Below are positions 3,097 through 42,993 of a DNA stretch of 64,000 nucleotides, piece by piece. Under the pieces are notes generated by a model that saw only the letters and a list, made by a program, of their open reading frames with translations, was not told where the DNA came from and did no database searches. The stretch is from Kingdonia uniflora (Eukaryota; Streptophyta; Magnoliopsida; Ranunculales; Circaeasteraceae), in assembly GCA_014058105.1 (NCBI GenBank), contig JACGCM010002885.1, positions 434,001-498,000 of the forward strand, in the 5' to 3' direction. A program made the position numbers and the translations under genes. How positions within the stretch are numbered: position 1 is the stretch's first letter; every line of letters begins with the position of its first letter.

Positions 3097-3186
3097 CTAA
3101 TCCAAATCTTCTAGCAGTTGAAGATACTTGCGAGCGTTCTTGCAATGTATTTGCTCACTAGGTCCGTGGCTTCCCAAGGCTTCAAC
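3097..3186 (-). pseudogene. 3' half of a terminal coding exon of an unidentified host gene, split by transposons
   Basis: On the minus strand this reads as the end of a protein (contains ALGSHGPSEQIHCKNARKYL, then LQLLEDLD and a stop at 3099-3097). The frame continues without shift into 27127-27105 (ending DLMREVIE) if the copia and CACTA insertions are ignored. A 3' splice site (TTTTCACTAG) precedes that upstream half. Sequence further left looks like 3'UTR. I do not recognise the protein. The reading is supported mainly by frame continuity across the insertion point. Confidence 0.45.
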
Positions 3187-3206
3187 TACTACGTAAAAAG
3201 TGTAAA
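3187..3206 (+). repeat. CACTA left terminal inverted repeat
   Basis: TACTACGTAAAAA then GTGTAAA. It matches the inverted right end with one substitution at the first base and one single-base gap. The AAC duplication precedes it. Confidence 0.9.
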
Positions 3207-3720
3207 AAACGACTTTGCAAGTCAGTCGTTCTTTGCCTAAAGAGACTTGTTTTTTTGTCGAAATAAGAGTCGCATTTTTTGCAGTAGTTTTTTGTTCTCA
3301 ACTTTTACTTGAGTCGTAATATTACGACTGAAAGTTAAGTTGTACAAATAGTCATTTTTTACCATTTTTGCGACACATTAGAACGTCGTTTTATGCGTCG
3401 CAATTAAATGACATAAATAAGAGTCGTAATATTTGTCTCATTTACCGCAATTTGCAACTGATATAGTTATTGTTTTATTGGTCGAATTATAACGACTATA
3501 CTATAAGTCGCCAAATACATAATATTCTTTTCATTTTTGCAACTAACATGAGAGTCATATTAAGCTTTATACAAAACACGACATAAATAAGGGTTGTTGC
3601 AATCGTCGTTTTTGATAAAACTTTGTAACACAAAAGTATGTCGTATTATGTGTCACATGAAAAAATGACTTAGATATGCGTTGTAGGTACTGCCTTATTT
3701 TTTTATATTTTACTAATTTT
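3207..3720. repeat. CACTA left subterminal repeat region
   Basis: AT-rich DNA studded with GTCG, CGAC and AAGAGTCGTAATAT-like words in both orientations, for example near 3205, 3225, 3250, 3310, 3375, 3425, 3505 and 3605. Such subterminal repeats bind the CACTA TNP1/TNPA-type protein in well-studied elements. That role is inferred here from position and pattern. Confidence 0.65.
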
Positions 3721-4365
3721 TTTATTGTTTTTTGCAGCTCAGACAAGCCCTCACGAATTTTTAATAATCAAACAGCACAATCAACTAACATATAAAGCAA
3801 TAATGACAAACAATTATCAATAAAAAGAAGATAGTAAAATTCCAATTAAAAGATCATGTCAAACAGCTTACCAATATCCAAAATGAAAATAGAAATGTCA
3901 AACAACTTACCAAGGTTGGCTTTAAATTCTATAAAAAAAATACAAAAAAACTCTTCACTGGATAATGGTAAAAATCTTAAGCCAAGCTACGATTTCACTT
4001 GCAGAGACGTCACCAAGGGTACAACTCTCAACATTCAAACACGCCTCTTCACGAATAACTTCATCGATTATAACCCTGTAAAACCCTTCAGGTGTAGTTG
4101 TATTAAACTGCACAATTCTGTAAGCAACATTAGTGCCAAACATATCTTTCAATATGCATGAATTACCGCTCGATGACTCAGGAGGTAGTGGTGAACATCG
4201 TCTTCCCTACAAGTAAATTGAAATAGTATGATGTTAACATTAAATGATAAAAACTATAACAATATTAAGTTTAAAAACCATACAAAGATTTATACCAATA
4301 GAAGAAGAAGCATATTTCAAACACATGAGTTATACTAATAGTTATTTTAAAGTATAAGTATTACA

Positions 4366-4671
4366 GAAGTCGTAGAAAGAAACAGATGGAAGCTTAAATC
4401 TGAAATCAATATTGATATTGAACTCGTGGAATTATTGCACAAAGACTTAGCTAAAAATGAAAGAAATGCCGCCCACGAGTTTTTCCTAACATTGACCGCT
4501 TGTCATCCCAATTGTTACTCAAAGTTCATCTTCTAGTTCTACAATGAGTGAATTAGATGAGCTTGTGGGTGCTATAGACCATCAGGGTGAATCCCCTTAT
4601 GAGCATGCTCTTATTTTTGTTGTACCTGCTTATGGATACACGCTCATTGACAAGAAAATGGATTGAAAAGA
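4366..4671 (+). pseudogene. Captured fragment of a P4-type ATPase (ALA1-like phospholipid flippase)
   Basis: The plus strand reads RWKLKSEI, then ELVELLHKDLA, AAHEFFLTLTAC, and after a short degenerate stretch SELDELVGAIDHQGESP and AYGYTL. I recognise the cytoplasmic nucleotide-binding region of plant aminophospholipid ATPases of the ALA1 group, where the family has AAHEFFLTLAAC and IDYQGESPDEQALV. Here PDEQ has become PYEH, and a stop follows the YGYTL segment. Only about 100 codons of a protein of roughly 1,150 residues are present, inside a CACTA intron, so it is a transduplicated gene piece. Its downstream end is the founder of the tandem repeats that follow. Confidence 0.8.
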
Positions 4672-5200
4672 TATAACAGATCCAGATGGTAATTCTAGGC
4701 ATACCTACTTATGGATACAATGGATATACGCTCATTGACAGGAAAATAGATTGAAAAGATATAGCAGATCATTGACAGGAAAATGGATTACGAGCAGGCT
4801 CTTATTTATGCTGTACCTGCTTATGGATACACGCTCATTGACAGGAAAATGGATTGAAAAGATATAGCAGATCTAGATGGTAATTCTTGGCATACCTGCT
4901 TATGGATACAATGGATACACACTCATTGATAGGAAAATGGATTGAAAAGATATAGCTGATCATTGACAGGAAAATGGATTACGAGCAGGCTCTTATTTAT
5001 GTTGTACCTGTTTATGGATACACGCTCATTGACAGGAAAATGGATTGAAAAGATATAGCAGATCCAGATGGTAATTCTAGGCATACCTGCTTATGGATAC
5101 AATGGATACACGCTCATTGACAGTAAAATGGATTGAAAAGATATAGCAGATTCAGATGGTAATTCTAGGCATATCTGCTTATGGATACACGCCCATTCTA
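4620..5200. repeat. Tandem repeats seeded from the flippase fragment
   Basis: A core beginning ACACGCTCATTGACAGG and continuing AAAATGGATTG, AAAAGATATAGC recurs about seven times. A longer unit of about 190 bp, marked by ACGAGCAGGCTCTTATTTAT at 4790 and 4981, is present in near-identical copies. The first copy is the end of the flippase-like reading frame (YGYTL), so the array arose by amplification after capture. Confidence 0.8.
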
Positions 5201-5301
5201 GGCATCCTCTCTACCCTTCTTTCCATTAAGTTAATAAAAAAATATATGATGCTTGCATAGCAACAACATTAGACAATTAACATGGACTAATTAGGTTTAG
5301 C

Positions 5302-6399
5302 TTAGCATATATATGATAAGTATCTATTGCGGTTTAAGCCATCAAACCCTGCCATTTTGTTTTGATCTGGCATCCCTAATCTACCCAACCGCCCTGACCC
5401 TGGATAAGCCTTGTTTGTGAAGTTTACGCGCAAAGTCAAAAGCCTCTGAGCACTATAATACCTCTTGGTTGAACTAGATTTTTCCAACTCAAGCCTCTGC
5501 CTTGGAGAACTCTGTGATCGGACCTTAGCCCTTGAAGATTCAGTGTTGGTCATACAATTTGGGTGGTCCAAGTACCCACTGTAAAAGCTTTGAGAGTATT
5601 CACTTTTTGTGGGAGTGAAGGGTCCTCCTCCCTTTGCGCTACCTGGTCTTGAAGTTGCTGAGTAACTCTTTGTGGGAGTGAAGGATCCTCCTTCCTTTGC
5701 GTTGCCTGGTCTTGAAGTTGCTGAGTAGAACTGTGGGCTGTCTTCTATTGCGGAGAACATTTCATCGTTAATGTCATGGTGAAATCTTCAAGGTTTCACC
5801 GTGGACTGAACTTCACCAGATGATACACTTGAAGTTGATCATTGATTTGTTGTAGAGTCTCTTGAAGTTGAGTCTATTGATGTTAAGCTTTGACTATTTC
5901 GGTCCAAAGATAAGGCATTATATGAAGAATGCAAGCCTCTGCGTCCTGTGGAATTGAAAAGTGGTTTCCCAGTATCTATCTCAAGTATCTTTTCTCTCTT
6001 CTCGTCATCCGTTGGGGTACTTCTTATCAGAGTTTCTCTATATTTTTCCATTCGACACTCTAAATAATGCCAACCCAAATGTGCTTTGCCAAAGTCAAAG
6101 TTGTCGCAACTGTTTTGCTTCACTGCACTTCCCTTGAGGTTCGAGAACCGATTATGGCTAGTACTGTTGGAGTATCTTGTGCGTTCATATTTCTCAGGTG
6201 TCAGTGGACCAGGGTGCGACATTGATGGCTTGTTGCTATGACGACGTGTCTCCATAATGGACCCACTACTAGCTCGTGCTCTGGCCCGAGCCTGGACTCG
6301 AACCAAAACTTGCATGGCCCTTATAGTATCTGCTATTTTCTTCCTCACAATATGCCCTCTTACAAGAGCTTAAAGCTTCACCAAACCCTTTAGCGCCCA
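5302..6399 (-). pseudogene. Captured fragment of an IQD (IQ67-domain) calmodulin-binding protein gene
   Basis: The minus strand begins within the IQ67 domain (ALKGLVKL*ALVRGHIVRKK, then AMQVLVRVQARARAR). It runs as one frame through a middle region with EKILEIDTGKP to the family's C-terminal block (ANTESSRAKVRSQS-like, PRQRLELE, FTNKAYPGSGRLGRLG). IQD proteins are plant microtubule/membrane scaffolds that bind calmodulin through IQ motifs. The frame stays open apart from three in-frame stops: one in the IQ67 domain, where other members have Q, and two near 5785-5825. A short internal duplication (SATSRPG...FTPTKS twice, about 5600-5740) is present. The N-terminal exons are missing, and the fragment abuts a LINE scrap. 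Confidence 0.88.
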
Positions 6400-7020
6400 C
6401 AAAGCCTATGGATTTAATATAGGCTTCTACAAACACAGTTGGAAGATTGTTGGCATGGATGTAATCAGAGCTATAAAAGCTTTCTTTAGATCATCCAAAA
6501 TCCTCAAGGAGACTGATCTAACCATCATCAAGCTTTTACCAAAAAGCAAAAATCCCAACTTCTTTGCCTTAGCAAAAATCCTCAAGAATAGACCTATCTT
6601 CCTTTGGAATGTCATTTACAAATTTATATCAAACTCATGGCACTGAGAATGAGGGATGCAACAATGAAGCAATTACTTGATTAATGCCAACTAGACTTTA
6701 TCAGGGGTAGATTTATTCAAGAAAATATATTGTTGGGTGTTGGCACATGAATTCTCAAGAGGCTTTGATAGGAAGTACTTCAAAGATGTGTTAGAAATAG
6801 ATCTGCATAAAGCCTCCGATTCAGTAAAATGGGGCATATCTTTTGTTGCCTCGAAAAATATATGCATCCCAAAGAGAAGAGGGTTGGATTTATAGATTTT
6901 AATGACTCCATTATGATGAGGACTCTATGGAACTTGGTCTCTGTGACAATCCATGGATTAGATGGATAAAAAAATTTACTTGAAAGAAAGAACATTTTGG
7001 ACAGTTGAAATACCTACAAA
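6393..7020 (+). pseudogene. LINE reverse-transcriptase scrap inside the CACTA
   Basis: The plus strand reads GFYKHSWKIVGMDVIRAIKA, then LPKSKNP and NVIYKFIS, matching the fingers/palm entry of plant L1 reverse transcriptases. FIQENILLGV and LEIDLHKASDSVKW follow from the same domain. It then jumps to ICIPKRRG and WIKKFYLKERTFW, normally several hundred residues later, so there is an internal deletion. Several stops are present. It begins exactly where the IQD fragment stops. Confidence 0.75.
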
Positions 7021-7439
7021 CTACTTCTAAACACGGAGATACCTACTTAAGAAAAAAAAAATAACTCTAAATTGCTGCAGAGTCATTGTGGAATAGGGTA
7101 AATACATATATTTAGCATAATCATTGGATGACAGGAGGAGTCTTATACTAGATGTATGAAATACCTGAGATGTGGAAGCATTGTTTTCAAAAGGACGATG
7201 CATATGCGCTTCACGTGGACACTCACGAGATTTAAAAGCCGCAACCTTTTTTTTAAGTTGCCTATGTTCATTAGCCTCAACCTCCAAACTTTCTTGCACC
7301 TCGTTAAGCATAGCTTGTTTTACCCTTTCCCGCTTAATAACCCTCCTAAAGGGTGCTGAAACTCTGAGGTTACTATTGTTGAGGCGGCCATTGTATCCCC
7401 TGACATGGCCATTTCCATCTGCCCCATATTCCTTTTACA

Positions 7440-8330
7440 TATAAAATCTTTTTGATGAAAACTAAGTAGAGTTCAATGTATATAAAATAAACTTGTATTT
7501 GAAACTACTAGAATTCAGAACTATATATACAAAAATAATAGAGTACTCTCAATTCACGACTATCGAAGTTCTCACTCAATTATTTATGAAAATTTAGGAG
7601 TACAAATGCTACTTACAATCGCTACTGCATCGTTATCTAAATCCTTATCCATGAGCATATGGTCTTTTTGAATAGCTTTGTTCATACGTTCCTGTGTTAC
7701 AGAAATAGTAAGTTTATCTTATTACTTAACTATACCTTTAAATATTCTAATAGTAAAATTTTCGAGTTCTTATACCATTCGTTCTTTCTTCTCCTCAGGA
7801 TATGTGCCATCCTCCTTAGTATGACAAGCCATAAAAATCTCATACCTTCACAGAAACTTTAGGTCTACCTTTTTCCTGCAAAACAATCATTAATTAAGTT
7901 TATTGTCAGGTTGATTTAACAAAACTTGTGAAGCATACTATAAATAAGAAATATCATTTATTAGCAGAAAATATATAAATACTTATGGAGTTTTATATAT
8001 AATTTTATTTTAGAAGAAGGCAATGACTAGTTTCAACAATTAGCACTTTCTATCTTACTTTTTATTACAATAAGTTCCAAAACTACTGTCCTGAAAAGAG
8101 AGAAATGACTCTTCAACAACACAGAGTAAAATAAAGCTACTGCTTTAAAAATAAAGCTACTAAAATCGTAATTATTAGAGCAAAACACGGGGGTTTTAAG
8201 TTAGGATTAGTACTACGAGGTTTTCCTAACCTTTGATTTTGATGAGTCTACGCAAAGTAATGAAATATAAACATTAAGCCATGTCCTTTAGGAAAAAAAT
8301 AACATGGATGTAAGATATATACCAGTATTT
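7440..8330. other. Intronic sequence of the CACTA second gene
   Basis: AT-rich, with short minus-strand coding scraps only (near 7620-7880). I see no independent gene. Confidence 0.4.
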
Positions 8331-9339
8331 CATTCTTTCCAGACGCGCCCAATCGACTTGTCGTGTACGGGCTATGCATTTTACTTCTAGCCGCCTTTCC
8401 CTTTTCACGCTTTGCTTGTTCTTCGGGAATTGATAAACGATCTACGAATTCGATCCAGTCTTCTTTCTTAACACCTTTTGGTCTCTTACTTTTCCTCTCC
8501 TCATCCGTTTTATATGCATTATAATTATTTGTTCTAAGCCTAGATTTCCAGTTTTGAATGCCATGCCTTGTAATCTAACATAACTTGGTGTTCATCAGGG
8601 TCAAGATTAAATGTTTCCTGCTTCGACAAAATTTAAATAAACCTACCAGGAAGAACAAATAGGCAATAATTGAACATATGGACTTAACTTACCGCAACAA
8701 CCTTCCGTATTTATTCTTTATCTTCTTCTTCTAGATCACGCCAATCACTGACCAATGGAGAAAGATTTTCCCTTATAGTCTCTCCAATGAAAGTATACAA
8801 AAATTTGCGATTTAGACCGATTGATTGGCCAACATCATCAAATTGTATAGGTATTAGCCCACCTCAACAGAAATACAAATAAACCAATATAAGTATTACA
8901 TAAATTTATGCATTATTAAAAGGATAATGATCTAAAAACTTTATATACCTCGTGGAGTTTGGAGACCACGTGGACGGTACTCTTTCTGCTGAGTAGTAGG
9001 TGGCTCCGAACTCACTCCCATAGATAACCCATCCTCGCCCGACATAAATACTAAAAATAAAGCAATATATGACATAGTTACTAAAACAAGGGTAGATAAA
9101 GCTAAATATTTAATAAATTTTTTTTTGCACAAAACGAAGCAGTAGATGATATGATTATTAGAACAAAGTAATGAATAGCTAAATAAACATAAAACAATAT
9201 AAAGATAACCACTATAATCCTTAACAAGATATATAATTACAACTGCGTGAAGAAAATATCCATAAATATGAGAACCATTATTTTAAAATTTTGAATTGCA
9301 AAACCAATTCCAAGGAATCAAATAAAAAATATTAAACAT

Positions 9340-12300
9340 TTAATGTAACGTATCTTCAACATCTTCAATGATATTATCTTCTACAACATCATCTACCAAT
9401 GATAAAATTGAATCGTCAACATTTATTCTCGCGGCAAAAACTAAGGGGTCCTCATAAGCATCTACATCTTTACTTAACCTCTTTGGAGAATCTAAGATAA
9501 TATGCCATTGCTCATCAGGTCGACTATGATCCTTGTAATAAAAGACTTGAGTAGCTTGAGATGCAAAAATAAATAGCTCATCGTCATCCTTTAAGTTTCT
9601 TTGCAACTTAGCAAGATTGACATGTCTCAAGTTCGTCACAACATCTACTGAACATCCACTTTCTTCTATGCGAACCCAATCACAATAAAAAACTAGCTTT
9701 TTGAATTCAATGTAATCTAACTCTAGTATTGATTTGACTATCCCGTAATATGTGACTTCCTCGTTGATGGGGTTTCTATCACCGACTTTTGAAATGAGTG
9801 AAGTTACAGCCCTCATGGACACACCACTATTTTGGGTAGTCTTATGTTTCTCTGACTCTGATGTACAAAAGACATATCCATTAACTTGGTATGACTTATA
9901 TGAAATAGCTTTAAAACTTGGTCCATCCACAAGCTTCTTGAAACTATAATTTTCATCATTTTTTAATTGTTGTCTTAACCAAGAAATATAATCTATCGGT
10001 TTCTCCGTTCGATGATTTCCTCTTTGACTTTGACTATGAGAATTAAGGTTTTCTTTGTAAGTGTTGTACTTCATGCAAATGAAATATTAACATAGATCAG
10101 GAGAATTACTAACCAAAGAATATAATTTTTTTATTTAATTTACTTACTCCTCCCACTTAGATTTTTTAGCTGCTTGCCGAAGAACCCATTTGCGTGCTTG
10201 CTCATACTCTACCGTGTTAAGATAGTATTCCTTCCCTTTCTTATTTAGCGGTTTGGCACATTCGTCATCATAATCACCTAACATTCTTAAACCTCGCGTA
10301 TAATTTCCTTTTGCTCTGTCATTCATATACTCCTTGCAATACATCATTGCTTCTCCGCCGAGGTATTTTTGCGCAATACACCCTTCTGGATATGTCTTAT
10401 TTGTTACATATTTTTTTATACCATTTCATCATCCTGTTGCATAGTCAATAATTTAGATATTGGAGGTATACCTAGTACATGTAAATAAATAAAAAAATAT
10501 AGATATTATTTACCACTCAAATGGGTACATCCATTGATAACGAACGGGTCCGCCAATTAACGCCTCATCTACCAAATGCACAACAATGTGTATCATAGAA
10601 ACAAAAAATGAAGGAAAGAAATACTTCTCAAATACACACAGTATTTCCGCAATCTGCTCCTTCATCTTTGTAAGCTCGCCGCGGTTTATAACCTTCGAAC
10701 ATAATACATTACAGAATTTTGACAACTCTCGGATAGCAACACGTAACGGCTTATACTTATTAAATGCATGTATTAATAATACTAGCAATAATTGCTACAT
10801 GAGGATATGATAATCATGGGATTTTAAATTTTTTAGTTGAAAATCGTCCATGTTCACATTATGTTGCCAATTTCTGCAGTAGCCGATAGGAACTTTGAAG
10901 TTGAATAAGGTTTTACAAATTAACTCTCTTTCGGATCAGGACAAACAAAATGGAGCTTCAGGCAAAACTAATATTCTAATCTTTTCTATTCGCCACAACT
11001 TTATCCTTATCTTCATTCTTTTAAGGTCTTTACAAGCTTTAACTCCATCCTTTTTCTTACCCTTTGTATTCATAATTGTTGCAAACAAAATCTCTGCACA
11101 ATTCTTTTCTGTGTGCATTACATCAAAATTATGGCAAAGCGATAAATCCTGTATAAATAACATGCATTTGTTATCATACATATAATTACGGTATATATAT
11201 ATTTAGGAAAATAAATTAACGCACCTTCCAGTACGGCAAATCAAATAGTATTGATCTCTTTGACCAAGCGGTAAATTTATTACCCTTATTTTTTTCTTGA
11301 GGAGATTCATTAACCTGTTTTGTACCTCTCTTCCTTTTTAAATCCTTCTTCTTATTTTTTTCTACATTACCGTATTTGGTATCAATAGCTTCCATCTTAC
11401 GTAACACTTCTACACCATTCATACGACGTTGAGGCTTGTCATGCTCTTCATTCCCATCAAATTGTGACTTTTGGCTTCTGAATGGGTGGTTTGCATCTTT
11501 TAGCTATATTCGGTGCTTCATATAAACAAACTTCCCTCCGTGCTTAAGCCACACTGACTTTGTCCCTTCATCACATACAGGAAAACTGTACCTTTCGGCG
11601 GTCTTGCAACCCGATAGATGCCCATACGTTGGGAAATCATGTATAACCCAAAACAATATTACTCTCATATTGAACCTACTCTTAGTGTAAGAGTCATACG
11701 TTTCTTTCCCATCTGACCACAACTCTTTTAGTTCTTCAATTAATGGTTACAAATACACGTCAATATCTTTTTTGGGACTCTCTTTCCCGGGGATTAAGAG
11801 TGTCAACATCGTAAACTCTTTTCGCATGCACAAAGATGGGGGGAGATTATAAGGAACAACCATTATGGGCCAACAACTGTAAGAGATATTCATGTTACCA
11901 AATGGATTAAACCCATTAGTTGCAAACCCTAAATGAGCATTATGCGCCTCAGATCCAAACTTGGGAAATTTACGATGAACCTGTTTCCAACAAGAAGCAT
12001 CTACGGGGTGCCTCATGGTATCTTCGTTTGCAGTTAAGTTTGCCTTTGCATGCCATGCCATTTCGTTTGCAATCCATGGAGCACTGTACATTTGTCGCAA
12101 TCTTGGTGTTAAAGGAAAGTATCATAACTTTTTCCATGGTTTATTAAGTTTGGGCTTCAATGGGTTTGTCGATCTCCATCTGCTTATATCGCATGTTGGA
12201 CAACTATCTTTGTCCGCATTCTCCCTCCAATACAATATGCAATCGTTACGACATGCATGTATTATCTTGTACTCCATACACGATGACTTAACTAATTTCT

Positions 12301-12994
12301 TCGCAGTGTATGTTCTATTTGGTAAAGTATTGTCATCTGGTAGAATCTCTTTAACATACCCTAAAAGTATTGTAAAACATTCGTTTGAAATATTGTATCT
12401 GGACTTCATGCTCAAGAACTTAACAACAACTGCTAATCTGGTATGTTCCTCTCGACAAACGGAATATAAAGATAGTAATGCATCTTCTATTAACTCTTTG
12501 TACTTTACATTCTCTTCAAGATCAATTTGTGCTTGATTAACACCTTCATTGTTGCATGTAAATGTAGTAGCCTCGACATGAGCTTCAACATTAACCTCAT
12601 CTTCAACATTGGCCTCATTAGGAAGATGTTCAAGTGTATCATTAACCATGGAGACCAACGGTGGACAAGGATCTTTAACATTATTGGTTGGAAGCGTACT
12701 ACTTTGGGAGTTCACATAGGATCTAGAGAATTGTTCTCCATGGTGAATCCATGTTGTGTATGTCGTATCAAAACCATTAATTATCAAATGCTCATGTATA
12801 TGTTCCAAGTCATTCTTCCCTTTCCTATTACGACATTTGATACACGGATAACTATACCAATCTACACCTCCTAAATTTGGTCTATTCTTGATTAATAAAT
12901 AAATAAATAACTCAAGACCACTCATATATTCCCGTGACCCTCGCGGTGCTTTCATCTATTTCTTGTCTAGGATTGCTGGCATAGATGATGTCAT
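9340..12994 (-). pseudogene. CACTA TNP2-type transposase gene (Transpos_assoc, Transposase_21, DUF4218, DUF4216), decayed
   Basis: From the ATG at 12994-12992 the domains occur in the canonical order. The transposase-associated domain (SREYMSGLELF, YPCIKCRNRKG, TTWIHHGEQF) lies at about 12945-12720. Transposase_21 segments (DNDTLPNRTYTAKKLV region, then HLGFATNGFNPFGNM, FPTYGHLSGCKTAERYSFPV, DLPYWKVR and HNFDVMHTEKN) lie at about 12400-11100. DUF4218 (FNKYKPLRVAIRELSKF, FPSFFVSMIHIVVHLVDEA, YQWMYPFEW) lies at 10788-10510 with a tail to 10144. DUF4216 (TYYGIVKSILELDY, VFYCDWVRIEESG, ATQVFYYKD) lies at 10074-9340. A stop falls where relatives have W near the N-terminus, and frame breaks separate the blocks; some gaps are introns. 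The family acts as nuclear CACTA transposase; this copy cannot encode a full protein. Confidence 0.9.
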
Positions 12995-14860
12995 TGTGTA
13001 GAGACGAATAAAAAAACCCAATAAATCTAGTTGCTGCACAATAAAATTTTATTTCATTGAGAAGTTGTATAAGTTAATGCTAGAAAGGATAAAAATTTCA
13101 ATATTTACACAAGTTGAATCGTTAATTATCTATATCGACCAATTAGTTTAAAATTCAGAACAATAATCTAATTATTACCAATCTGGTTTCAATAAAAAGT
13201 GTTGTTCTTCCAAACTTCACATTCTATAATTTTACAGTTAGTACAGGTGCAACACGAAAGAGTTATCTCTTTAATATAGACCATCATCGTCCACAAATTA
13301 TCCTAACCATATTTTTCTCCCTTCGTATGGTTGTTTGAATCCATGAATATGATGCAATGCAAATTCATCAATTACTTGAAACTAGCCAAATTATAGGTCC
13401 GTCAGCTAAGCTAATTAGGCACATCTACAAATGGTTGGTGACTTCTTTTAGTTTTCGTTGAAAGAGTAGATAGATTTTAATATCACATGCATATGGTTAT
13501 AGTATATAAGGAATACCAGGCTGAGCTGTTATGGAATAAATTAGCTACAACATGCTAATATATTTTTCTTATAATGTGAAGGGCATCTGACCTAAAATGT
13601 TTGATTCTTTCTAACTGTGACCTCAATTAAGTAGAAGACATATATTTTCTTTGGGAAGACTTGATACATTCACATCTAGTACAGCGGTGCCATCATATTT
13701 TAGCTCATTGTAAACTTTCAATCTAGACCTTCAATATTGTCCCGATATTTATCCTAACCGTTGATTAAGTGTGACATTGGAATCTATAACTCTATAAACA
13801 TTGCAATGTATGTTGGGCAAAGTAGAAGTCGGTCAAGAAGACTTCCAAATGTAATTACTTAAACCAAAATACAGCAAATTAGGCATGATGGATGTTTCTT
13901 TTCTTTTATTTCCATCGAAAGAGTCGGTGGGGTTGTATTATATAGCAGATAGATTTAAACCATTGTGTCTGCACAATGGAAGCGGCCACATATATTAAAT
14001 ACCATTTCGATGCAACTATCTGCAGTATATCTATTTTGGTATAAAAATGAAAATGAGCTTCCAAAGAAATTGGTATTAAATACCATTTCATATGTACGAA
14101 TTCTTTGTTTTATAGTGTTGAATTACCATGATATTGTTCATTTATATATATTGTTCAAAATATGGAGTGAAAGTTTTTACATTAACGAGAAACAACAGTT
14201 TACTTTCGTCATTTATTCTTTGGAATTTAGAAGTTCTAGACATATTCATCTGAGTTTCATTACTTGTTATAGTCTCAGACAATATCGTTGCTACTTTCTG
14301 TCTGCCATTGTTTAGTTAGTGACTGAAAGACAGTCTCAGAAAATGAGTAAAAAATTGGAATCTAGAAAATAAATTATGACAGGATATGAACATAACCAAA
14401 GCCAATCTGCCAAAAACATAGGCCTTTAGCGATCCATATACTGTCTCTAGATAATGCAGAGGGACATGAAGTTAGAAGTTCAACTGTTTCATCTGAACAA
14501 GGGGTTTCTGGGGAGATAGCTTAAACAAAAATGAACAGTACTGAATCCCGAGAATGTCACATTTTACGTTAGAGACAGTATAAATATAATAAAAATTGTA
14601 GGCAAGATAGTTGCCAGTAGGGAGCTTGAAGACCAGGTATGAATTTGTTGTTGGTACAAAGGCATAAAGTTTCTTCAGTTTAGATAATTAGTAAAACAAA
14701 ATACAAATGAAAATTCGATCTAGCGATGTATGGCTTAATTTACTTGATGTTTTTACAAGATCTTTGGTTAAGCAGTGATTACAGTATTTCATGAGTTAAA
14801 GCCTTGTGAATATGTTTGAGATAAGAAGAAGATTCATGTGAACTCAAGCTGGAATTCTTG
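12995..14860. other. Unassigned AT-rich sequence, probably leader intron of TNP2
   Basis: There is no convincing coding homology on either strand. The position between the TNP2 start codon and the likely leader exon near 18.1-18.4 kb suggests it is intronic DNA that also hosts the captured mannosidase fragment. Confidence 0.35.
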
Positions 14861-14904
14861 GCAAGGATTTGAACACAATAAGGGTGTTTGTTACACAAGT
14901 TATT

Positions 14905-16326
14905 GAACACACTGGAGGGTTGAACTTCTCAAATCTGGACTAAATACACTGGTGTTCTAATATGGAAGACTTAGAATCCTTGGACTGGTCTTTGGGGTCA
15001 GTTCTCTTATCATCTCCATGACCAAATAGCAGGTTTCAATGGCTGCCGTTCCGCAGCTGAACCAATTCATGTCCAACTTAATCTTGCAACGTATTTCATA
15101 GGGGTAGTCATCGCCACCTCAGAGGAACTATCTAATGTAACAGTTGAAATCTCAGTATGGGATTTAGATGGGAACCATCCATATTACAAAGTCACTGAAA
15201 AATTCATAGTGCTGGCCAAAACAACACAATCCGTCATCGAGATGAAGTACCCCAAGTCGAAATACCCGAAACCGGTTTACTTTCTCCTTCTCAGGCTTTT
15301 TGGAAAATAGGACTTTACAATTATGTCAAGGAACTTTTAATGGTTGCATCTCCAAGGTGGAGATTACAAGCTTTTGGAGACTTATAGACAAAGAAAATAC
15401 CCCTATAGATGATGTCTATATAAAAAAAATAAAAAAATAGAAAGAAAAAAAAGCAAGCAAGCTTTCTACGATAAAAGATTCAGTAGAATGCTTCCAGCTT
15501 TTGTTAATTAGTACTACTAATTAGCAAACAGCATAATGGAAAAAGTTAAAACGTTCTTAATTTCTTATTCTAGTGAAGCTTACATTTCATATCGAAAAGT
15601 TGGAGGAAACGACTTTGTTTTTCTTAATATGTTCCTCTTGTGGGGGAATCCCAGCTATTTTTCCCTTAATAAAAAATGTATGGCACAAGGTCAGCTGAGT
15701 TGGAACCTGGGATAACTTCTAGTAGTAGTGGGATTGAGGGCAGAGAAAGCAAGTCAAAGAACTTAGAAGTCCATTGTATATAGAAAACTACCAAAAGATC
15801 AGAGCACAGAAAGAGCACCACATCAGTCATTAGGATGCTATGGTCATGGAGAACAAGCAGCTATTATAGAAGTTAGATAGTGTCAAGTCCTTCTGTCCAA
15901 AACAACAAACTTCAAAACATTAAGCTGCAAGAATCATATCATTGATAGACATGACAATGATTATGATATGGGCTCTGTTGAACCAATGGAAATCCCTTCA
16001 GAGAAGTCGTATAATTATGGTTTATTACAGAGGATATATAGAAGGTTTTCAACAGGGGGCGATGGTGTGAATTTTGTAGAAACAAATGGGACTAACTCTG
16101 GAGTTGCCTTCTTTCCCCACTTTTCAGTCCACGCCACAAAGAAAGTCAAGCAAGAAGGAGAAGGCACAAGAATTCTCCCAATGCATTATTCTGATAACTA
16201 CTTCTCTTTGGTTCCAGGGGAGACGACAACTATTAATATGTCACTCCCAGGGTCACGCTTTATGGATGGAACTATCACGGGGGCCATACTGTCTATTGAG
16301 GTTACTAAATTTGTAGGCGTTTATTG
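14905..16326 (+). pseudogene. Captured fragment of mannosylglycoprotein endo-beta-mannosidase (GH2 family)
   Basis: The plus strand reads [82 protein letters not shown] and LLETYRQRKYP (to about 15410). After about 550 bases of non-coding or intronic DNA, a second block from 15968 reads GLLQRIYRRFSTGG, NSGVAFFPHFSVHATKK and RILPMHYSDNYFSLVPGE. These match the C-terminal half of plant endo-beta-mannosidase, which cleaves Man-beta-1,4-GlcNAc in N-glycans. In-frame stops (such as EG*TSQ, and one after MSRNF) and the missing catalytic N-terminal domains make it a pseudogene. Similarity fades after about residue 100 of the last block. It lies antisense to TNP2. Confidence 0.88.
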
Positions 16327-16329
16327 AAG

Positions 16330-17890
16330 TTAACTTTGAGATAAGCTGAACTTTTGTACTATTGAACCAATCATGCAATTTGATTGAATATGTGAGCTCA
16401 TGGTTTATGGCGTTCATATAAAAAAAATTGACTATCTCAACATACAATAGTCATTCCCGACCAACTGATGAGAACCTTTACACCTTAACGAAATTCTTCA
16501 AGCAAAATGGAGTCAGCCTCGATGATGTTCAGGCATGATCTTAACCCAAATACCCACTATATTAATATAATTCCAGTAAGAACTCGAATACACACTATAT
16601 TAAGCATCTATAGTAGCTTCTCTGAATGTTCAATCTAGTGGAGAAACATTGAATACGTCACACTTGACACTCTGGCAGTGCCAACTCGGTCATTATGTAC
16701 TACTACATATATTGGATTTAAACGATTTGTTCAGTCACACTTGATGGTGATTTTCAACTTTTTAATCTTGACTCATGTTTTGTTACCTCAAATACGCTCA
16801 CAAACTTATCATGACTATGAGAACTATGACGAAGGAGTGTGAATAGTATGTTAATAACAAATCCTGAACCTCCCGTACTGGAGGAAATGGCAAAAGGTAT
16901 TGCTTCAGAACTGTTTGAAAGTAGAGCTACTTATTAAAGAACTAAAATCAACATATTATATATATCTCCCTGAATTATGTATACTATCAAACTAAAAATA
17001 ACATAACTATTAAGTAATACACATGAAACAAATTATGTATGTTATTAAAGTAAAAAAAAACACATTAACAGATTAGAAATATCTTACCTCAGTCTGAATC
17101 CCCAATTCAATTTCAATGACCCAAATCTTCCAGCAATTATGTGAGAACAAGCATATACCTTTGTAAAACAAAAACAACAACAAAACAAATAGAAGTTGTA
17201 AGAAATTCTAAGAACAATCAATTTAATTAATAATTGAGTATACCCAACAATTGATCTTTACCCAAATTAATAATTAAGTAAAATAAAAAGAGAAAATAGA
17301 TATGTAGGGAATAAATAATATGAGTGAATCAGGGTTTGTTTTCGTTTGACCCAGATTGAGTTTCTTATTTGAAAAATATAAATTTGGTCCTGGTTGTACT
17401 ACGATCTTATACTTTAACTTTTTTTTTATAAATATCATTAAAATTGTACATCTACATTGAAATGGAAAACTAGGTAACCATGAGAATACTCGAAAGTTGT
17501 TTTCTAAAGAAAATAATTGAAAAAAAAATCACTTTTATCACAGAAGGAACCCTAGAGCAAACATCCACCTGAAACTTTTCTAGCTAAAACTTTTAATAAA
17601 ATTTAATATGATTCAAAATATTGAACCTACAACTCAAATTTTATGCCTGGTAGATATCAATTCACAGTCATGTTATAGTTTGCCGAACAGATAGATATAT
17701 TAAACAATTCCACTATTGCTCCTCAAAATATAACAAAGTATGTACAAAATCTATTATCCTCTCTAACAAGAAAGACGACAAGAAATATATAGCAAAGATG
17801 TCAAAGCATAATCAAACTAGAAACAAACTCCTAACTCTAAACAAGATTATAAGAACATGGTTTCACGTGAAAATACAAAGAACTATATGT
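16330..17890. other. Unassigned AT-rich sequence of the CACTA
   Basis: No gene or RNA seen. Only short chance reading frames are present. Confidence 0.35.
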
Positions 17891-17895
17891 ATAGA

Positions 17896-18072
17896 AACTG
17901 TGAAGCAAAACAAAAACATATATAATGAAGCAAAATTAAAATTAAAAACTTGCAGTAACTGTGAAGCAAAACAAAAAATATATAATTAAGCAAAATTAAA
18001 ACCAAAAACTTACTGAAACTGTGAAGCAAATCAAAAAAAATATAATGAAACAAAATTAAAACCAAAAACTTA
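17896..18072. repeat. Three-copy tandem repeat, about 60-bp unit
   Basis: Copies start at about 17896, 17957 and 18017. Each begins AACTGTGAAGCAAAACAAAAA-like and ends AAAAACTT. The repeat creates a chance reading frame on each strand. It lies in the probable TNP2 leader intron. Confidence 0.85.
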
Positions 18073-18105
18073 TTTAGATCAACAAAAGAGAGAGAGAGGT
18101 CGTAC

Positions 18106-18400
18106 CTTCAACTATTTGTGAAAGGGATTAGAATCCTCAGATTTACGAAGAAGTAATTCGAATCCCAATTTGAAACCTAACTGATTTTGAAATCCTAAAA
18201 TATTGGGAGAGTATCATGGGGAGCGGGGAAGAGAATCGTGGGCAGGAGGGAATCCAATTTTACAATTAAATTTTTTGCGGGAGATCGCGAGGGAACCGTG
18301 GGAGGGGAGAGTTGTAGGAAGGAGGGAAAGGGAATTGCTAAGGAGGGAAAAAATTAGACTCAAATCAAAGTCTATGAATGCCAAATAAAACGATAAATAA
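18106..18400 (-). promoter_or_regulatory. Probable TNP2 leader exon and promoter region
   Basis: A locally G/C-rich island stands out from its AT-rich surroundings. Read on the minus strand it is pyrimidine-rich (CTCCCCTCCC, TCTTCCCCGC) and ends in a good donor (TGAAG|GTACG at about 18110-18101). CACTA transposase genes commonly start with an untranslated exon near the 5' end. The assignment is by position and splice signal only. Confidence 0.35.
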
Positions 18401-19687
18401 AATAAATAAAACCTACAAGGTAATTTAAGTCATTTGTCAGTTATTTTTTCCTATTTTTGGTGTAACGAAGGATCTCACTTTGTTCAAGAGCAGTTCCCAA
18501 ACAAGGTTAACCATCTGATTATCACATTTCTCAATAAGCACACCTGATCAAGCACCTTTCTACCAAATTATGTTTCTGGCAAAAGCAATATTTATAGTAG
18601 TTCTTATTACGTTGAAACCTGGTATATGAATTATGTCAGGCATCTAAGACCCTTGATTATTTTGTTATGTTCATTTCTTCTTCCCTTGTTGAATGAGTTT
18701 TTTGTTTATAAGATCACTTTATGCTCTCAAATAAAAGTCTTATGTTTAGTCCATAGAAGGATGCAAGATCATATGGCTTAGTACTTTCCTCAATTGACAA
18801 ACAATCTATTTTATCAGTACCTCAAGAATGAAGGAACAAACTATCACAAAATATAGGGAACATAATCTAGAAGAGTTAACTAGAAACATTCATCACTCGA
18901 TATTCAAAAAAGTTTTTACCATTTAAAATATCCGGGTAAACCTAATCAGATCAAAGGCCAAAAGATTAGTAAACATCTCCTGTAGGCCAGTGTTTGATGT
19001 TAGTATACATTGTATAGTTTTCGAGTGGTATCCCTTTCTACGAGACAATGCCCCTTAAGTGTTGTTTCCAAATGGCTCCTATATTTTATATGTTTCTTTG
19101 TTGCATTTCCATGTTCAATTAAGAATGATTGTTAGGGATGGGTTTGTTTCTCAGTAGTTACTTTAATGAAATCTTAGAAAAATACCCAATTCAGATTGTG
19201 GCAGAATTATTGGAGATTGATCGATTTGTACGGGGTTAGGGTTTTTTGGGTGTTTGACTTGAGAGGGAATTATAGAATTTCCTGTGAGAGACAAATTTGT
19301 AGAGAGATACATGGATTGGAAAGTTATATTTTAACTTTACCTTAGAGATTTAAGGAATCCCAACTTAATTGGATCCTAATTTTAGATTTGCGCGGGTATA
19401 TTGGTTTTCTATTCGTTTAATTTGAGCGGGGAATTAATAGAGTTTGTTTTTTGGGAGAAGGATTAAAGTTGTATATTACTGATAAAATAAAATGACTTGA
19501 TCAAGTGGCCAAATTAAAATAGTTTTACAACTCCTTAAACAGTCATATAATTTAAGACATAAATAAGAAGGAAAAAAATTAAAACGACGGGGGTTCTAAA
19601 ATTGCGACTTCTAATAGAAGTCTTATTTTTTATTCAAAGTATGATACATGCACCAAGTCGCAAATTACTATCCAAAAGTGTTGGTAT
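18400..19687. other. CACTA right internal and subterminal sequence
   Basis: AT-rich with no gene. GTCGC/CGAC subterminal words appear at about 19584-19665, just inside the right end. Confidence 0.45.
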
Positions 19688-19707
19688 TTACACATTTTTA
19701 CGTAGTG
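19688..19707 (-). repeat. CACTA right terminal inverted repeat
   Basis: It reads CACTACGTAAAAATGTG on the minus strand, keeping the canonical CACTA. It is followed by the AAC duplication at 19708-19710. Confidence 0.92.
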
Positions 19708-19710: not shown

Positions 19711-20353
19711 TATTGAGTGTGAATTCAAATTGTCGAAAAACTAGAATTGTCAAAGTCGTTCGAGCAAAAATAGGTGTCATTTGAACGACTCGTTTGAACG
19801 AGTATGGATTTCGTTCGAGCGAGATAGTAGTTTTCGCGTTGGAAACTTGGAGACCAAAGAAGTCGTTGGAACGAGCTTGGATGTCGTTGGAACGAGTTGT
19901 TATTTTCTAGGGCTGAAGACATTTTATTGTTAAAGTCGTTCGAACGAGCTTTGAGACGTTCGACCGAGATGTGCTTAGGTTTGTTTTAGAAGCTATTTTG
20001 GGACGTAGAGTTTGCCTCGAGATCCGTTCTACTTGTAATTAGTCTTCTAGTATATAAAGAGGATGTTCGTTATTTGTTTGCCTATCTTTTTTCTGTGAGT
20101 TGAATTCTATAGAGCTAAGATTTGAGAGACTCCATTACAAAGCTTGAGAAGGTTGGATAGATCGTATAATCTGTTTGATCATAGTGGATTATTTGTGGGG
20201 AGAAGTTTTTTTCTTTCTAAGGGTTTTCCACTTCCCTCCTTTAGGAAAATTCTTGCCTTCTTTATTATTCTTTGGTTAATTGTTCACTTGTTAGGCATAT
20301 TCCACGTATCGTTCTTAGCGTAAAAGAGATAGTTGCTACCTCAATTCTCAATA
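19711..20353 (+). repeat. Copia 5' LTR
   Basis: Starts TATTGAGTGTG (the 3' copy has TGTTGAGTGTG) and ends CTCAATA (the 3' copy has TTCAACA). U3 carries about eight GTCGTTCGAACGAG-like motifs. A TATA box (TATATAAAG) lies near 20053. Confidence 0.88.
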
Positions 20354-20397
20354 GTTGGTATCAAAGTGCTTGTTGCAGGGCTTGTGTGGTAAATAAT

Positions 20398-23300
20398 GAT
20401 GGCTGATCTAGAGAAATAGAAGATTACAAAGTTCAATGGTTCAAATTTTGGAGTATAGGAGATATATATAGAACATTACCTCTATCAAAAGGATCTTGAT
20501 TTACCACTGGGTGGAGTTGAGAGATGAAGCCAACAGATTATGATACTGCTGAGTGGGCGTGATTGGATCGTAAGACACTTGGAACTGTTAGGTTAGCGTT
20601 ATCATCTCAAATCCTGCATATGATTTCCAAAGTTACGACAACAAAGAGTTTGATGGTGACTTTATCCTCTATGTACTTGGAACCGTCTGGGGCAAATAAG
20701 GTACATCTTTTATGGTGTTTATTTACTTTGAAGATGAAAGAGAACGGTAGTGTGCAAGCTCAAATTAGTGAGTTCAATACTATTCATGCTTAGCTTGAAT
20801 CTGTGAAAACTACTTTTACTGAGGAGTTGATAGCGTGGGCACTTCTAGGGGATATGCCTAAGAGCTGGGAAGGGTTTATTATAGCTGTGAGCAATTCATC
20901 AGGAAAGGAAAACATTAAATTTGAAACTATAATCTCTTTGTTTATGAGTGAAGAGAATAAGCATAAAACATCTGAACCCTCCTCGAGTTCAAACAGTAGT
21001 GCGTTGAACGTCAAGGAAATAAGGAGGTCTTACAGAAAAGGACCAAAATATGGAAGGGGTCATTCACAGTCAAGAGGAAAGTCTAAGCCACCCAGTGCGT
21101 GTTGGAATTGTAGAAAGAAGGGTCACTTCAAGCGAGATTGTAACTCTTCTTCTAAAAAAGTTGATGATGAGGGAAAAGAAATAATGAACCTTACTGAGGA
21201 GATTAGTTATAATGAAGTTCTACTACTTTCGTGTACCGATGTTAATAAATCCTGGATAGTTGATTCGGGTGCCTCATTCCATACTACTGCAAACGTAGGT
21301 TTCCTAACCAATATTGTTAAAGGCTACTTTTGTATGATCTTTCTTGCAGATAAGAACGTACGCAATATTACTAGAAAGGGAAACACTAGGTTGATGTTGC
21401 CTTCGGAGGCGATGTTGGTTTTACAGAATGTGTGACTTGTACCCAAATTAGGGCGTAACCTTATATCAGTTAGCAAATTGGCGGATAATGGTAGATATGT
21501 AAACACCTTTGGTATAACCTTCTGGAAGGTTATAAAGAGAGCTATGGTAGTAGCTCGAGGCTTAAGATAAAGAACATTGTATATAACGCAAAGCACAATC
21601 TTTACTATTTGTGCGGCCAATCCGAGGATTGATACAAGTACTTGGCACAAACGGCTCGGTCATATGAGTGAATATGGGATGAATATGATGGTAATAAAGG
21701 GAAAACTATAGTTTCTTGATGCGGTTGATCATAAGTTTTGTGAAGAGTGTGTTCTTGCGAAGCAGAAGAATGTTAGTTTCAAAATAATTGAAAGATCAAG
21801 GAAACCTGGAAAACTGGATCTTGTACACATAGATGTTTGCGGGCCAACCAAGGTGTCTTATCTTGGTGGTTCCCATTACTACGTTACTTTCATTTGTGAT
21901 GTTACTCGTAAACTGTAGGTCTATTTCGATCGTGAAGAATAAATTAGATGTGTTCGATAAATTTAAGAAGTTGAGGGCTCTAGTTGAAAATGAAACCGGT
22001 TTGAAACTGAAGTATCTCAGTTCGGATAATGGGGACCAATACAATAGTGACGAGTTTGAAGACTTTTGCACATCAAATGGGATTAGGAGATAAAAGATTA
22101 TTCTCAAAATACCGCAACAAAATGGTGTTACAGAACGCATGAACTGAACCATAAACGAAAGAGAAAGGAGTATGAGATTCAACGATGGATTGCCAAAATG
22201 TTTTTGGGCGGATGAGGTTAGTACGGCAACGTACTTGATTAACATATGGCCTTTAACAGCTTTAGACTTTAGACTTCCTGACGAAGCATGAACCAGTAAA
22301 GAGGTAAACCTTTCTCACTTGCGTATTTTTGGCTGTACCTCATATGTTCTTGATAATTCAGATACAAAAACAAAGTTAGATGTAAAGTCGATGAAGTGCA
22401 TATTCATTGGATATGGTGGTGATGAGTTTAGGTACCAATTTTGGGATGCGAAGAATTGGAAATTCATCCGGAGCCGTAATGTTACATTCAATGAGGAAGT
22501 TTTGTATAAAGACTTCAAAGTACCTGTAGAAAGGAATCGAAGTAAAATAGCGGAATGTGTCGACATTAAATTTGGACCCCTCTTGAGAGGTTGATGAAGA
22601 AGTCGTGGTTGAGTCTGATGCACCAGATCAAGACGAGGAACCTAATAATCTAGACATTCTAATAGTACTTCGAAAGGAGCCGAGAATTGCAAGAGTTCCG
22701 GCTAGGTACGCTAACTCTCTAAATCACTTGTTACTTACGGATGGTGGTGAACCAAAAAGTTACAAGGAGGCTTTAGATGTGGAAGCCAAGAGAAAGTTGG
22801 AACTTTCTATGGATGATGAGATGTAGTCATTATCAGTAAATCAAACTTAGGATTTAGTTTAGTTACTAAAAGGGACGAGAGCATTGCACAACAAGTGGGT
22901 ATACAGACTAAAACAGGAATCTGACGGTTCAAGGAGATTCAAGGCTAAACTTGTGGTAAAGGGCTTTCAGCATAAAGAATGTATTAATTTTGGTGAGATC
23001 TTTGCTCCTGTTGTGAAGATGTCTACTATTCAGGTTGTGATGAATATAGTTGCAGTTGAAGATTTGCATTTTGAGCAGCTTGATGTCAAGACAACATTTC
23101 TTCACAGCAACCTTGATGAAGAAATATATATGAAGCAGCCAGAAGGGTATTCAATTAATGGGAAAGATGATCTTGTGTGTAGGCTCACAAAGAGCTTATA
23201 TGGTTTGAAACAATCGCCGAAACAGTGGTATTTAAAGTTTGAACAATTCTTGTCTAGAAATGGTTTTTCGAAGAGCAATGCGGATCACTATTATTTTATC

Positions 23301-24239: not shown

Positions 24240-24752
24240 AGGTAGTGACTTTTCAGAAGTTGATGACATGTACAACTTCTAAGAGTTTTCAAGATTGAAG
24301 ATCCGGCTAGTGCGAGCAATTCATTTGAAGATCTGAAGATGGGTTACTGGATTTAATTTCAAGTGAGGATTGTTGAGTGTGAATTCGAATTGTCGAAGAA
24401 CTGGAATTGTTGAAGTCGTTCGAACAAAAATGGGTGTCGTTCAAATGACTCATTCGATTTCGTTCGAACGAGATAATAGTTTTCATGTTGGAAACTTGGA
24501 GACCGAAGAAGCTGTTCGAACAAGCTTGGATGTCATTTGAATGAGTTATTGTTTTCTAGGGCTAGAAACCTTTTATCGTCAAACTCGTTCTAATGAGCTT
24601 AGAGTCGTTCGAGTGAGATGTGCGTAGGTTTGTTTTAGAAGCTATTTTGGGACGTTGAATTTGCCTCGAAATCTCTTCTACTTGTAATTAGTCTTTTAGT
24701 ATATAAAGAGGACTTATGTTATTTGTTAGCCTATATTTTCTTTGTGAGTTTA

Positions 24753-25137
24753 TGATGTGGCGCATCCCTCATAGGATCGTTTACCCACCATACCACATAT
24801 GTTTATTTATACTTTTAATACTTTGTATTTTAGTCTTTAGCTTAAGCCCTGTCAGCGAGGCCCAACCTAGGTTATTAGCAGTTTCCTAGTTTAAGCAGAA
24901 TTTCATTTCAATTAAAATTATGGTTCCTAATTCTAATCCCCCCCCCTTGTGTTCTATAAAAGGGAAGGTGTAGGTTATTTTGTTTCTTAGTTATTTTTAC
25001 AGTTAATTCAGTTAAGTTAGTTTTGTTAAGAACAAGAGTTTTATTTAATAAAATTAGGGTTCCTCAAGAACCTAATTCCTCTTGTTAAAACTGGTGTTCT
25101 TCTTGATTATTGGCTTCCGCATAATCAGTTTACATCA
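24753..25137 (+). repeat. 5' LTR of the nested non-autonomous element
   Basis: It contains a poly-C run and TTCTATAAAAGGG, a TATA box at about 24954-24962, and ends ACATCA. Confidence 0.88.
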
Positions 25138-42988: not shown

Positions 42989-42993
42989 ATAAA

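What the first reader, a model, noticed from the sequence alone, without database searches (positions are those of the whole stretch)
3187..19707. A 16.5-kb CACTA element that has collected pieces of three unrelated host genes
Matching ends and an AAC duplication delimit one element. Inside it, beside decayed TNP2 and Transposase_24 genes, lie a flippase fragment (4366-4671, +), an IQD fragment (5302-6399, -) and an endo-beta-mannosidase fragment (14905-16326, +). They differ in strand and source, so they were gathered in separate events. Pack-type CACTA elements are known in plants; this combination and its placement inside introns of both transposon genes appear unusual.
Basis: partly seen in the sequence, partly recalled or inferred. 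Interest (0 to 1): 0.85.

Follow-up and report, generated by a model that had tools for sequence, protein, structure and literature searches.

The report
Gene-carrying CACTA transposon in Kingdonia
This is an old, broken plant jumping gene from the alpine herb Kingdonia uniflora that picked up pieces of three host genes; one of them was carried along as the element's family multiplied, and it has decayed as a passenger.

Summary
One CACTA (En/Spm) element runs from 3187 to 19707: 12/13-bp inverted ends, an AAC target duplication, subterminal repeats, a TNP2 gene and a Transposase_24 gene (ORF2). Removing it restores the target duplication of the copia retrotransposon it landed beside (TCAAC/TCAAT, 4 of 5). 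The flippase, IQD and endo-beta-mannosidase pieces are real. The window is Kingdonia uniflora: protein GIB67_010038 maps residue for residue. Two searches found 28 Kingdonia gene models with pieces of this family; 11 carry IQD sequence. An almost complete IQD gene was most likely captured once, inside ORF2's last intron, and then amplified. Since capture, changes hit conserved and variable IQD sites equally (7.2% and 7.4%, p = 0.89), so the frame shows no constraint: a passenger. Flippase, IQD and LINE pieces lie in a verified ORF2 intron. The mannosidase piece lies upstream of the TNP2 start codon, perhaps in a 5' intron. Multi-gene capture by CACTA elements is known (Tgm-Express1, Tpn1, Jozin, Cactavine-5): a new member of a known kind.

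The parts
3184..3186 (.). target-site duplication AAC, left copy (also the last 3 bases of the older copia TSD TCAAC, 3182-3186)
3187..3199 (+). left terminal inverted repeat TACTACGTAAAAA (3' end of the element with respect to its genes)
3187..3690 (.). subterminal region rich in GTCG/CGAC motifs (16 against 1.0 expected)
3958..4206 (-). last exon of ORF2 (GRRCSP...FTIIQ, stop)
   Evidence: 84% to P0242 residues 424-506; acceptor AG at 4208-4207
4207..7164 (-). last intron of ORF2 (2958 bp, GT..AG kept); holds the flippase, IQD and LINE pieces
   Evidence: spanned by sister gene models P0242, P0243, P0247
4366..4654 (+). P4-ATPase (flippase) fragment, one frameshift
   Evidence: TIGR01652 E 5.3e-6 (two frames joined by X); no Pfam or PDB hit
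4597..5189 (+). tandem expansion of the end of the flippase piece, about 3 copies of 191 bp plus an 88-bp repeat
5305..6405 (-). IQD (IQ67-domain, DUF4005) piece, from ALWALKG to beyond the native C terminus; in-frame stops at 6370-6372, 5839-5841, 5788-5790; tail NRYLSYIC shared with P0121
6425..7035 (+). LINE reverse-transcriptase remnant (edges by eye) that replaces the 5' half of the IQD piece; its antisense reading recurs in sister model P0124
   Evidence: (typed reading joined by X, 28% over 141, E 1.9e-8 to a LINE elsewhere in the window); no Pfam hit on its pieces
7165..9075 (-). remaining ORF2 (Transposase_24) exons: 9075-8947, 8863-8693, 8571-8317, about 7890-7611, 7431-7165
   Evidence: PF03004 on sister models
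9343..12994 (-). TNP2 transposase gene, decayed: in-frame stops at 12956-12958, 12122-12124, 11747-11749, 11504-11506 (and 11216-11218, where an exon may end)
14912..16299 (+). endo-beta-mannosidase piece (last third of the gene, to the native stop), main blocks 14912-15409 and 15896-16296, frame-broken
17087..17158 (-). short exon-like piece followed by GTAAGA, shared with gene models P0248 and P0260; possible 5' exon of the TNP2 transcript
19695..19707 (-). right terminal inverted repeat CACTACGTAAAAA
19708..19710 (.). target-site duplication AAC, right copy
19711..27104 (+). host insertion site: copia retrotransposon (5' LTR 19711-20353; 3' LTR 24371-24752 + 26852-27099; TSD TCAAT 27100-27104)

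Best explanation
A single, now dead CACTA element of a multi-copy Kingdonia family inserted exactly at the 5' edge of an older copia retrotransposon. Long before that, an ancestor of the family acquired an almost complete IQD (IQ67-domain) gene inside the last intron of its second gene (ORF2, Transposase_24), in the same orientation. The intron would remove the cargo from the ORF2 transcript, so it could be carried without breaking ORF2, and transposition spread it to about ten other annotated places. In the window's lineage a LINE remnant replaced the 5' half of the IQD cargo. A flippase piece lies in the same intron on the opposite strand and expanded as a tandem array; a mannosidase piece lies upstream of the TNP2 start codon. 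How the pieces entered was not tested; I favour filler DNA copied from elsewhere during repair of the gap left by excision (recalled), and aberrant excision of neighbouring copies is the published alternative. The IQD cargo does nothing detectable: it decays neutrally. Shown: ends, target duplication, nesting, intron placement of IQD and flippase, sharing of IQD among gene models, neutral change. Inferred: entry mechanism, single IQD capture, the TNP2 5' intron, separate timing of the three captures.
For: Ends, AAC duplication, subterminal repeats and restored copia target duplication. Both CACTA genes present. P0122 (Kingdonia uniflora GIB67_010038) maps 299 of 299 residues in four exact blocks. 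11 of 28 Kingdonia gene models carry IQD sequence (P0257 weakly, 48% over about 40 residues). The IQD pieces compared are 80-96% identical to the window's, about as much as ORF2 exons 3 and 4 (71-92%), while five plant IQDs are 52-53%. P0121 shares the non-native tail NRYLSYIC. P0254, P0256 and P0259 start the IQD at WFRALLGG, almost its native start. Three of 28 models splice ORF2 exon 4 directly to the last exon (P0242, P0243, P0247), with GT..AG kept in the window. Neutrality: changes 43/598, 33/453, 23/309 cells at sites of high, middle and low native conservation, p = 0.89 for high against low.
Against: Sister copies were seen only as predicted proteins, not DNA. The flippase and mannosidase pieces were not seen in any sister copy, but could hardly show on the opposite strand of gene models. 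A tree of ORF2 (19 rows) puts IQD-bearing copies in several places (4 changes against 6.3 shuffled, p 0.037); the absence of IQD from the other models is itself uncertain. The 15410-15895 gap of the mannosidase piece does not behave as a plain retained intron (about 20 residues are missing), so genomic versus spliced copying stays open. The AAC bases serve both boundary tests.
Confidence: 0.85

Rival explanations
1. The gene pieces did not come by CACTA capture: other gene-carrying elements (Helitron, Pack-MULE) inserted into the CACTA element and brought them.
For: Nested elements are common here: a LINE remnant lies inside the same intron and an LTR element is nested in the neighbouring copia. 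Helitrons and MULEs are known gene carriers (PMC1947982, Background).
Against: Of the 22 inverted-repeat pairs of 25 nt or more listed, none brackets a piece closely; shorter ones were not looked for. A stringent scan for Helitron 3' ends found none in the window on either strand (no positive control; old ends could have decayed). IQD pieces of sister gene models are joined to the same ORF2 exons.
Confidence: 0.12
2. The IQD piece became a working domain: ORF2 exon 4 is spliced to the IQD exon and the family makes an ORF2-IQD fusion protein.
For: Same orientation as ORF2. Gene models P0121, P0122 and P0123 join ORF2 exon 4 (...STSQ) straight to IQD sequence; P0252, P0256 and P0259 join IQD to the last ORF2 exon at the same acceptor.
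Against: Those first three models enter the IQD at three different points. Substitutions are equally frequent at conserved and variable IQD sites (7.2, 7.3, 7.4%). The window copy has three in-frame stops. Gene models are predictions; no RNA was seen.
Confidence: 0.04
3. The two ends belong to two different CACTA elements, and the gene pieces are host DNA between them.
For: The left end begins TACTA instead of CACTA, and the right subterminal region has only 3 motifs.
Against: AAC on both sides; 12 of 13 match; shared inverted subterminal 9-mers; excision restores the copia target duplication 4 of 5; both genes run in one direction between the ends, in the order I recall as usual for CACTA elements.
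Confidence: 0.03

Closest known systems
Tgm-Express1 (soybean CACTA element in the wp allele of F3H; PMC1947982, abstract and Background section read)
   Same: CACTA ends around intronic and exonic pieces of five unrelated host genes; captured exons are used by the splicing machinery.
   Different: Tgm-Express1 is 5.7 kb and described as composed of gene fragments; the Kingdonia element is 16.5 kb and keeps both of its own (broken) genes. Splicing there was shown by RT-PCR; here only gene models were seen.
Tpn1 family (Ipomoea nil; PMC5105172, passages read)
   Same: Many copies that capture genic regions; 3-bp target duplications; subterminal repeats; chimeric transcripts reported.
   Different: In the gene-capturing Tpn1 elements the interior is replaced by host sequence; here the cargo was added to an element that still has TNP2 and ORF2 remnants.
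Jozin (Chenopodium CACTA-like element; PMC8978399, passages read)
   Same: A CACTA element with coding domains plus captured gene fragments, and in one case a tandem-repeat array; [quoted passage not shown]
   Different: Other genes (Neprosin, AP2). Capture into an intron of the second gene was not among the passages read.
Cactavine-5 and CACTA-ULP families (grapevine; PMC2528002, passages read)
   Same: Long (21-25 kb) CACTA elements with a 3-bp TSD, transposase and, in two copies, a captured PPR gene piece in opposite orientation; some families carry a ULP domain.
   Different: Different cargo and position.
Pack-CACTA (Arabidopsis and others; PMC8903248, passages read)
   Same: Coding DNA between CACTA ends.
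   Different: Described as non-autonomous elements that hold captured coding DNA; the Kingdonia element carries remnants of both transposase genes as well.

Membership tests
CACTA (En/Spm) superfamily | terminal inverted repeats beginning CACTA | tested here: met
   right end exact, left end TACTA (one change); 12 of 13 over the repeat
CACTA (En/Spm) superfamily | 3-bp target-site duplication | tested here: met
   AAC / AAC
CACTA (En/Spm) superfamily | subterminal repeats at both ends | tested here: met
   left 16 against 1.0 expected; right 3 against 0.5, weak
CACTA (En/Spm) superfamily | TNP2 (Transposase_21) transposase | tested here: met
   Pfam E 2.3e-37 and 1e-25 on two adjacent pieces
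CACTA (En/Spm) superfamily | second protein (Transposase_24 / TNPA-like) | tested here: met
   not by Pfam on the window's own pieces, but by alignment to sister models, several with PF03004
Pack-CACTA | host coding pieces between CACTA ends | tested here: met
Pack-CACTA | no transposase gene of its own | tested here: not met
   remnants of TNP2 and ORF2 present, though broken
Pack-CACTA | intact donor genes elsewhere in the same genome | tested here: inconclusive
   no Kingdonia donor among the listed hits (120 of 321 and 120 of 943); the genome search did not complete
Helitron | 3' hairpin followed by CTRR and T | tested here: not met
   none in the window with a perfect stem of 7 bp or more by my scan (no positive control)
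IQD gene family | IQ67 domain and DUF4005 | tested here: met
   DUF4005 by Pfam in the window; IQ motif by Pfam only in sister models (P0254, P0252; P0256)

The most novel reading that the evidence does not exclude
The last intron of ORF2 in this family is a standing cargo bay and its last exon a splice trap. Different copies have different material after ORF2 exon 4 (IQD; two models with ISIELSET...; one with VSPCSEVV...), and the same terminal exon is part of four gene models that also hold a synaptotagmin-like C2 gene, an alpha-galactosidase, a PPR gene and a LINE RNase H. Some of these fusions could be real transcripts and so a recurrent source of chimeric plant genes.
Probability: 0.12. 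Interest if true: 0.6.

Novelty: new member of a known kind. Interest (0 to 1): 0.38.

Why it matters
It gives an example of how a cut-and-paste transposon may carry an almost whole host gene without losing its own coding gene: the cargo sits in an intron and multiplies with the element. It also offers a direct neutrality test on a captured gene family (equal change at conserved and variable sites). And it suggests that the 11 Kingdonia database proteins with this IQD sequence, several of them labelled 'DUF4005 domain-containing protein', are transposon cargo rather than IQD genes (one, P0259, begins with a host C2 gene).

Tried and rejected
Native gene context for the pieces: rejected, since they lie between CACTA exons or between TNP2 and the right end, on mixed strands, each incomplete. 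Two-element origin of the ends: rejected by the AAC duplication and the restored copia target duplication. Alternative nesting (copia inserted later beside the element): its target duplication would be TGAAC/TCAAT, 3 of 5, against 4 of 5 for the chosen order; less likely, not excluded. Helitron or MULE carriers: no ends found. I first took AG at 6407-6406 for the conserved IQ67 intron acceptor; Abel et al. (PMC1368998, passages) place that intron between codons 16 and 17, by my count three codons earlier, so I dropped intron retention as evidence. A first neutrality test (74/730 against 68/754, p 0.48; 62 of 114 plant proteins) contained misaligned pieces of P0121 and P0259; the cleaned one used 10 of the 11 IQD-bearing models (P0257 left out as frame-shifted; P0122 enters as the window) and 61 of 114 plant IQD proteins, six of them from an unnamed source. 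The ORF2 tree is weak and was not relied on. tRNA and Rfam scans found nothing. Pfam on ten further stretches, nine in the element's remaining space and one in the LINE remnant, found no additional cargo (one hit below cut-off, DUF3392 at 0.026). PDB search of the flippase piece found nothing, Pfam neither. The paper search pairing Kingdonia with CACTA listed 6 papers, by title mostly on plastid genomes and ndh loss; I read none of them.
Full report
WHAT WAS CHECKED. The finding claims one CACTA element at 3187-19707 with three captured host gene pieces. The ends are real. TACTACGTAAAAA (3187-3199) and inverted CACTACGTAAAAA (19695-19707) are the only two sites in 64 kb within one mismatch of that sequence, each flanked by AAC. 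GTCG/CGAC motifs crowd the left subterminal region (16 against 1.0 expected) and less so the right (3 against 0.5).

SECOND, PARTLY INDEPENDENT CHECK OF THE BOUNDARY. The sequence right of the element is a copia 5' LTR that starts at 19711 (reverse transcriptase RVT_2 E 1.7e-60 and copia-type gag E 6.7e-5 inside). Its 3' LTR is at 24371-24752 plus 26852-27099, split by another LTR element with its own 4/5 duplication GTTTA/ATTTA. The two copia LTRs differ at 90 of 630 aligned bases (K80 0.16). With the CACTA element taken out, the copia is flanked by TCAAC and TCAAT. So the CACTA element most likely landed exactly at the junction between the copia's target duplication and its LTR, after the copia's insertion. 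The three bases AAC serve both tests, so they are not wholly independent.

HOST. The database search with the IQD piece returned six Kingdonia uniflora proteins first. P0122 (GIB67_010038) maps onto the window in four exact blocks covering all 299 residues: 7832-7776, 7691-7617, 7431-7165 and 6339-5842. The window is therefore from the Kingdonia uniflora assembly (Circaeasteraceae, Ranunculales). The host gene at the window's left edge has a TORTIFOLIA1 N-terminal domain (E 6.9e-18).

GENES OF THE ELEMENT. TNP2 lies on the minus strand with Transpos_assoc, Transposase_21, DUF4218 and DUF4216. Its frame from the start codon at 12994 is broken by stops at 12956-12958, 12122-12124, 11747-11749 and 11504-11506, and meets another at 11216-11218, where an exon may end. 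ORF2 follows at 9075-7165 and ends in an exon at 4206-3958. Pfam did not recognise the window's own ORF2 pieces, but sister gene models match exons 3 and 4 at 71-92% (P0256, read in another frame there, 26%), and several of them hit Transposase_24. In three of 28 models (P0242, P0243, P0247) ORF2 exon 4 is joined directly to this last exon; the window keeps GT after 7165 and AG before 4206. The 2958 bp between them is therefore ORF2's last intron.

CARGO IN THE ORF2 INTRON. (a) IQD: minus strand, 6405-5320 aligned at 52-53% to IQD proteins of Aquilegia, Coptis and Macleaya, DUF4005 E 1.2e-11, with three in-frame stops. (b) Flippase: plus strand, 4366-4654, 61-68% and 49-55% in two frames to two plant phospholipid ATPases, TIGR01652 E 5.3e-6 when the two frames are joined with X. 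Alone, one piece gives TIGR01652 at 0.05 and the other only chance-level unrelated hits; Pfam and the PDB give nothing even for the joined piece. Its end is repeated as about three 191-bp units to 5189. (c) A LINE remnant, plus strand, about 6425-7035: a typed reading joined with X is 28% identical over 141 positions to a LINE elsewhere in the window, E 1.9e-8; Pfam gave nothing on its pieces. Its antisense reading occurs in sister model P0124 just before the IQD part (26 of 30 residues), so the window and P0124 share the event that replaced the first half of the IQD piece.

CARGO UPSTREAM OF TNP2. The mannosidase piece (plus strand, 14912-16299) is the last third of the gene down to its stop, 73% and 61% identical to Macleaya in two blocks (53-63% over the query among the 120 hits listed). 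It lies between the TNP2 start codon and an exon-like piece at 17158-17087 that is followed by GTAAGA and recurs in gene models P0248 and P0260. A TNP2 5' intron is therefore possible but not shown.

HISTORY OF THE IQD CARGO. Two searches, each limited by length and shared words, gave 28 Kingdonia gene models with a piece of this family (six first seen, 22; P0126 and P0250 have neighbouring locus tags and may be one element; P0272 and P0274 match only by the last exon). Eleven of the 28 carry IQD sequence (P0257 weakly, 48% over about 40 residues and then frame-shifted). P0254, P0256 and P0259 carry it from WFRALLGG, close to its native start MGKTARWFR; P0121 and the window share the non-native tail NRYLSYIC. 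Piece by piece the IQD copies are 80-96% identical to the window's, about as much as ORF2. The simplest reading is one capture of an almost complete gene before the family spread; a tree of ORF2 is too weak to test this.

NO FUNCTION DETECTED. If the IQD frame had been kept for use, changes should avoid sites conserved in plant IQDs. They do not: 43 of 598, 33 of 453 and 23 of 309 cells changed at sites of high, middle and low native conservation (7.2, 7.3, 7.4%; high against low p 0.89, 10 of 11 IQD-bearing models, 61 of 114 plant proteins). The family consensus still agrees with the plant consensus at 86 of 97 highly conserved sites, as expected of a gene that was constrained until capture. 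Cells of related copies are not independent, and codon-level data were not available.

MECHANISM. How the pieces entered was not tested. I favour filler DNA copied during repair of gaps left by excision (recalled; PMC8978399, passages, refers to Rubin and Levy for the mechanism). The review PMC13317346 (passages) describes for Pack-CACTA another route, aberrant excision of closely spaced copies. An intron is a safe place for cargo, since it is spliced away. Helitron or MULE carriers were sought and not found.

COMPARISON. Capture of several host gene pieces by CACTA elements is known: Tgm-Express1 carries five (PMC1947982, abstract and Background), Tpn1 elements capture genic regions (PMC5105172, passages), Jozin and Cactavine-5 carry some beside their own genes (PMC8978399, PMC2528002, passages). 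The Kingdonia element is a CACTA by the five features tested, and is not a Pack-CACTA in the strict sense because remnants of its own genes are present. The combination of genes and the use of ORF2's last intron are particular to it; I did not meet this intron position in the passages I read, which is not a claim that it is absent from print.

LIMITS. No DNA of sister copies could be read (genome search did not answer in nine tries). All statements on sister copies rest on predicted proteins. No donor gene was seen among the listed hits. The timing of the flippase and mannosidase captures is unknown.

Noticed in passing
window 24753-26846: A 2.1-kb LTR element (LTRs 24753-25138 and 26469-26846, 88% alike, TSD GTTTA/ATTTA) nested in the copia 3' LTR.
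   Followed up: partly
window 37321-37832 and 42478-42989: A repeat pair, 87% alike over 512 bp, with motifs of the CGTTCGAACGA type that also occur in the copia LTR at 19711 and at 2638-2734.
   Followed up: no
Kingdonia proteins P0246, P0251 and P0245: Two sister models read from ORF2 exon 4 into another shared sequence (ISIELSET...DIYRTILVDKERNVENN...), and P0245 into a third (VSPCSEVV...): what follows ORF2 exon 4 differs between copies.
   Followed up: partly
Kingdonia proteins P0258, P0259, P0272, P0274: Gene models with LINE RNase H, synaptotagmin-like C2, alpha-galactosidase and PPR domains also contain the CACTA element's last exon: annotation artefact, insertion into genes, or exon trapping.
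   Followed up: partly
No Kingdonia donor gene for the mannosidase or IQD piece appears among the 120 best hits listed in each search, although other Ranunculales genes do; the donors may be lost, unannotated, unnamed or outside the length window.
   Followed up: no
window 17893-18087: A 60-bp tandem repeat (3 copies) inside the element's right half.
   Followed up: no
window 2-853, minus strand: The first coding exon of a host gene with a TORTIFOLIA1 N-terminal domain (PF24714, E 6.9e-18), about 2.3 kb from the element.
   Followed up: partly
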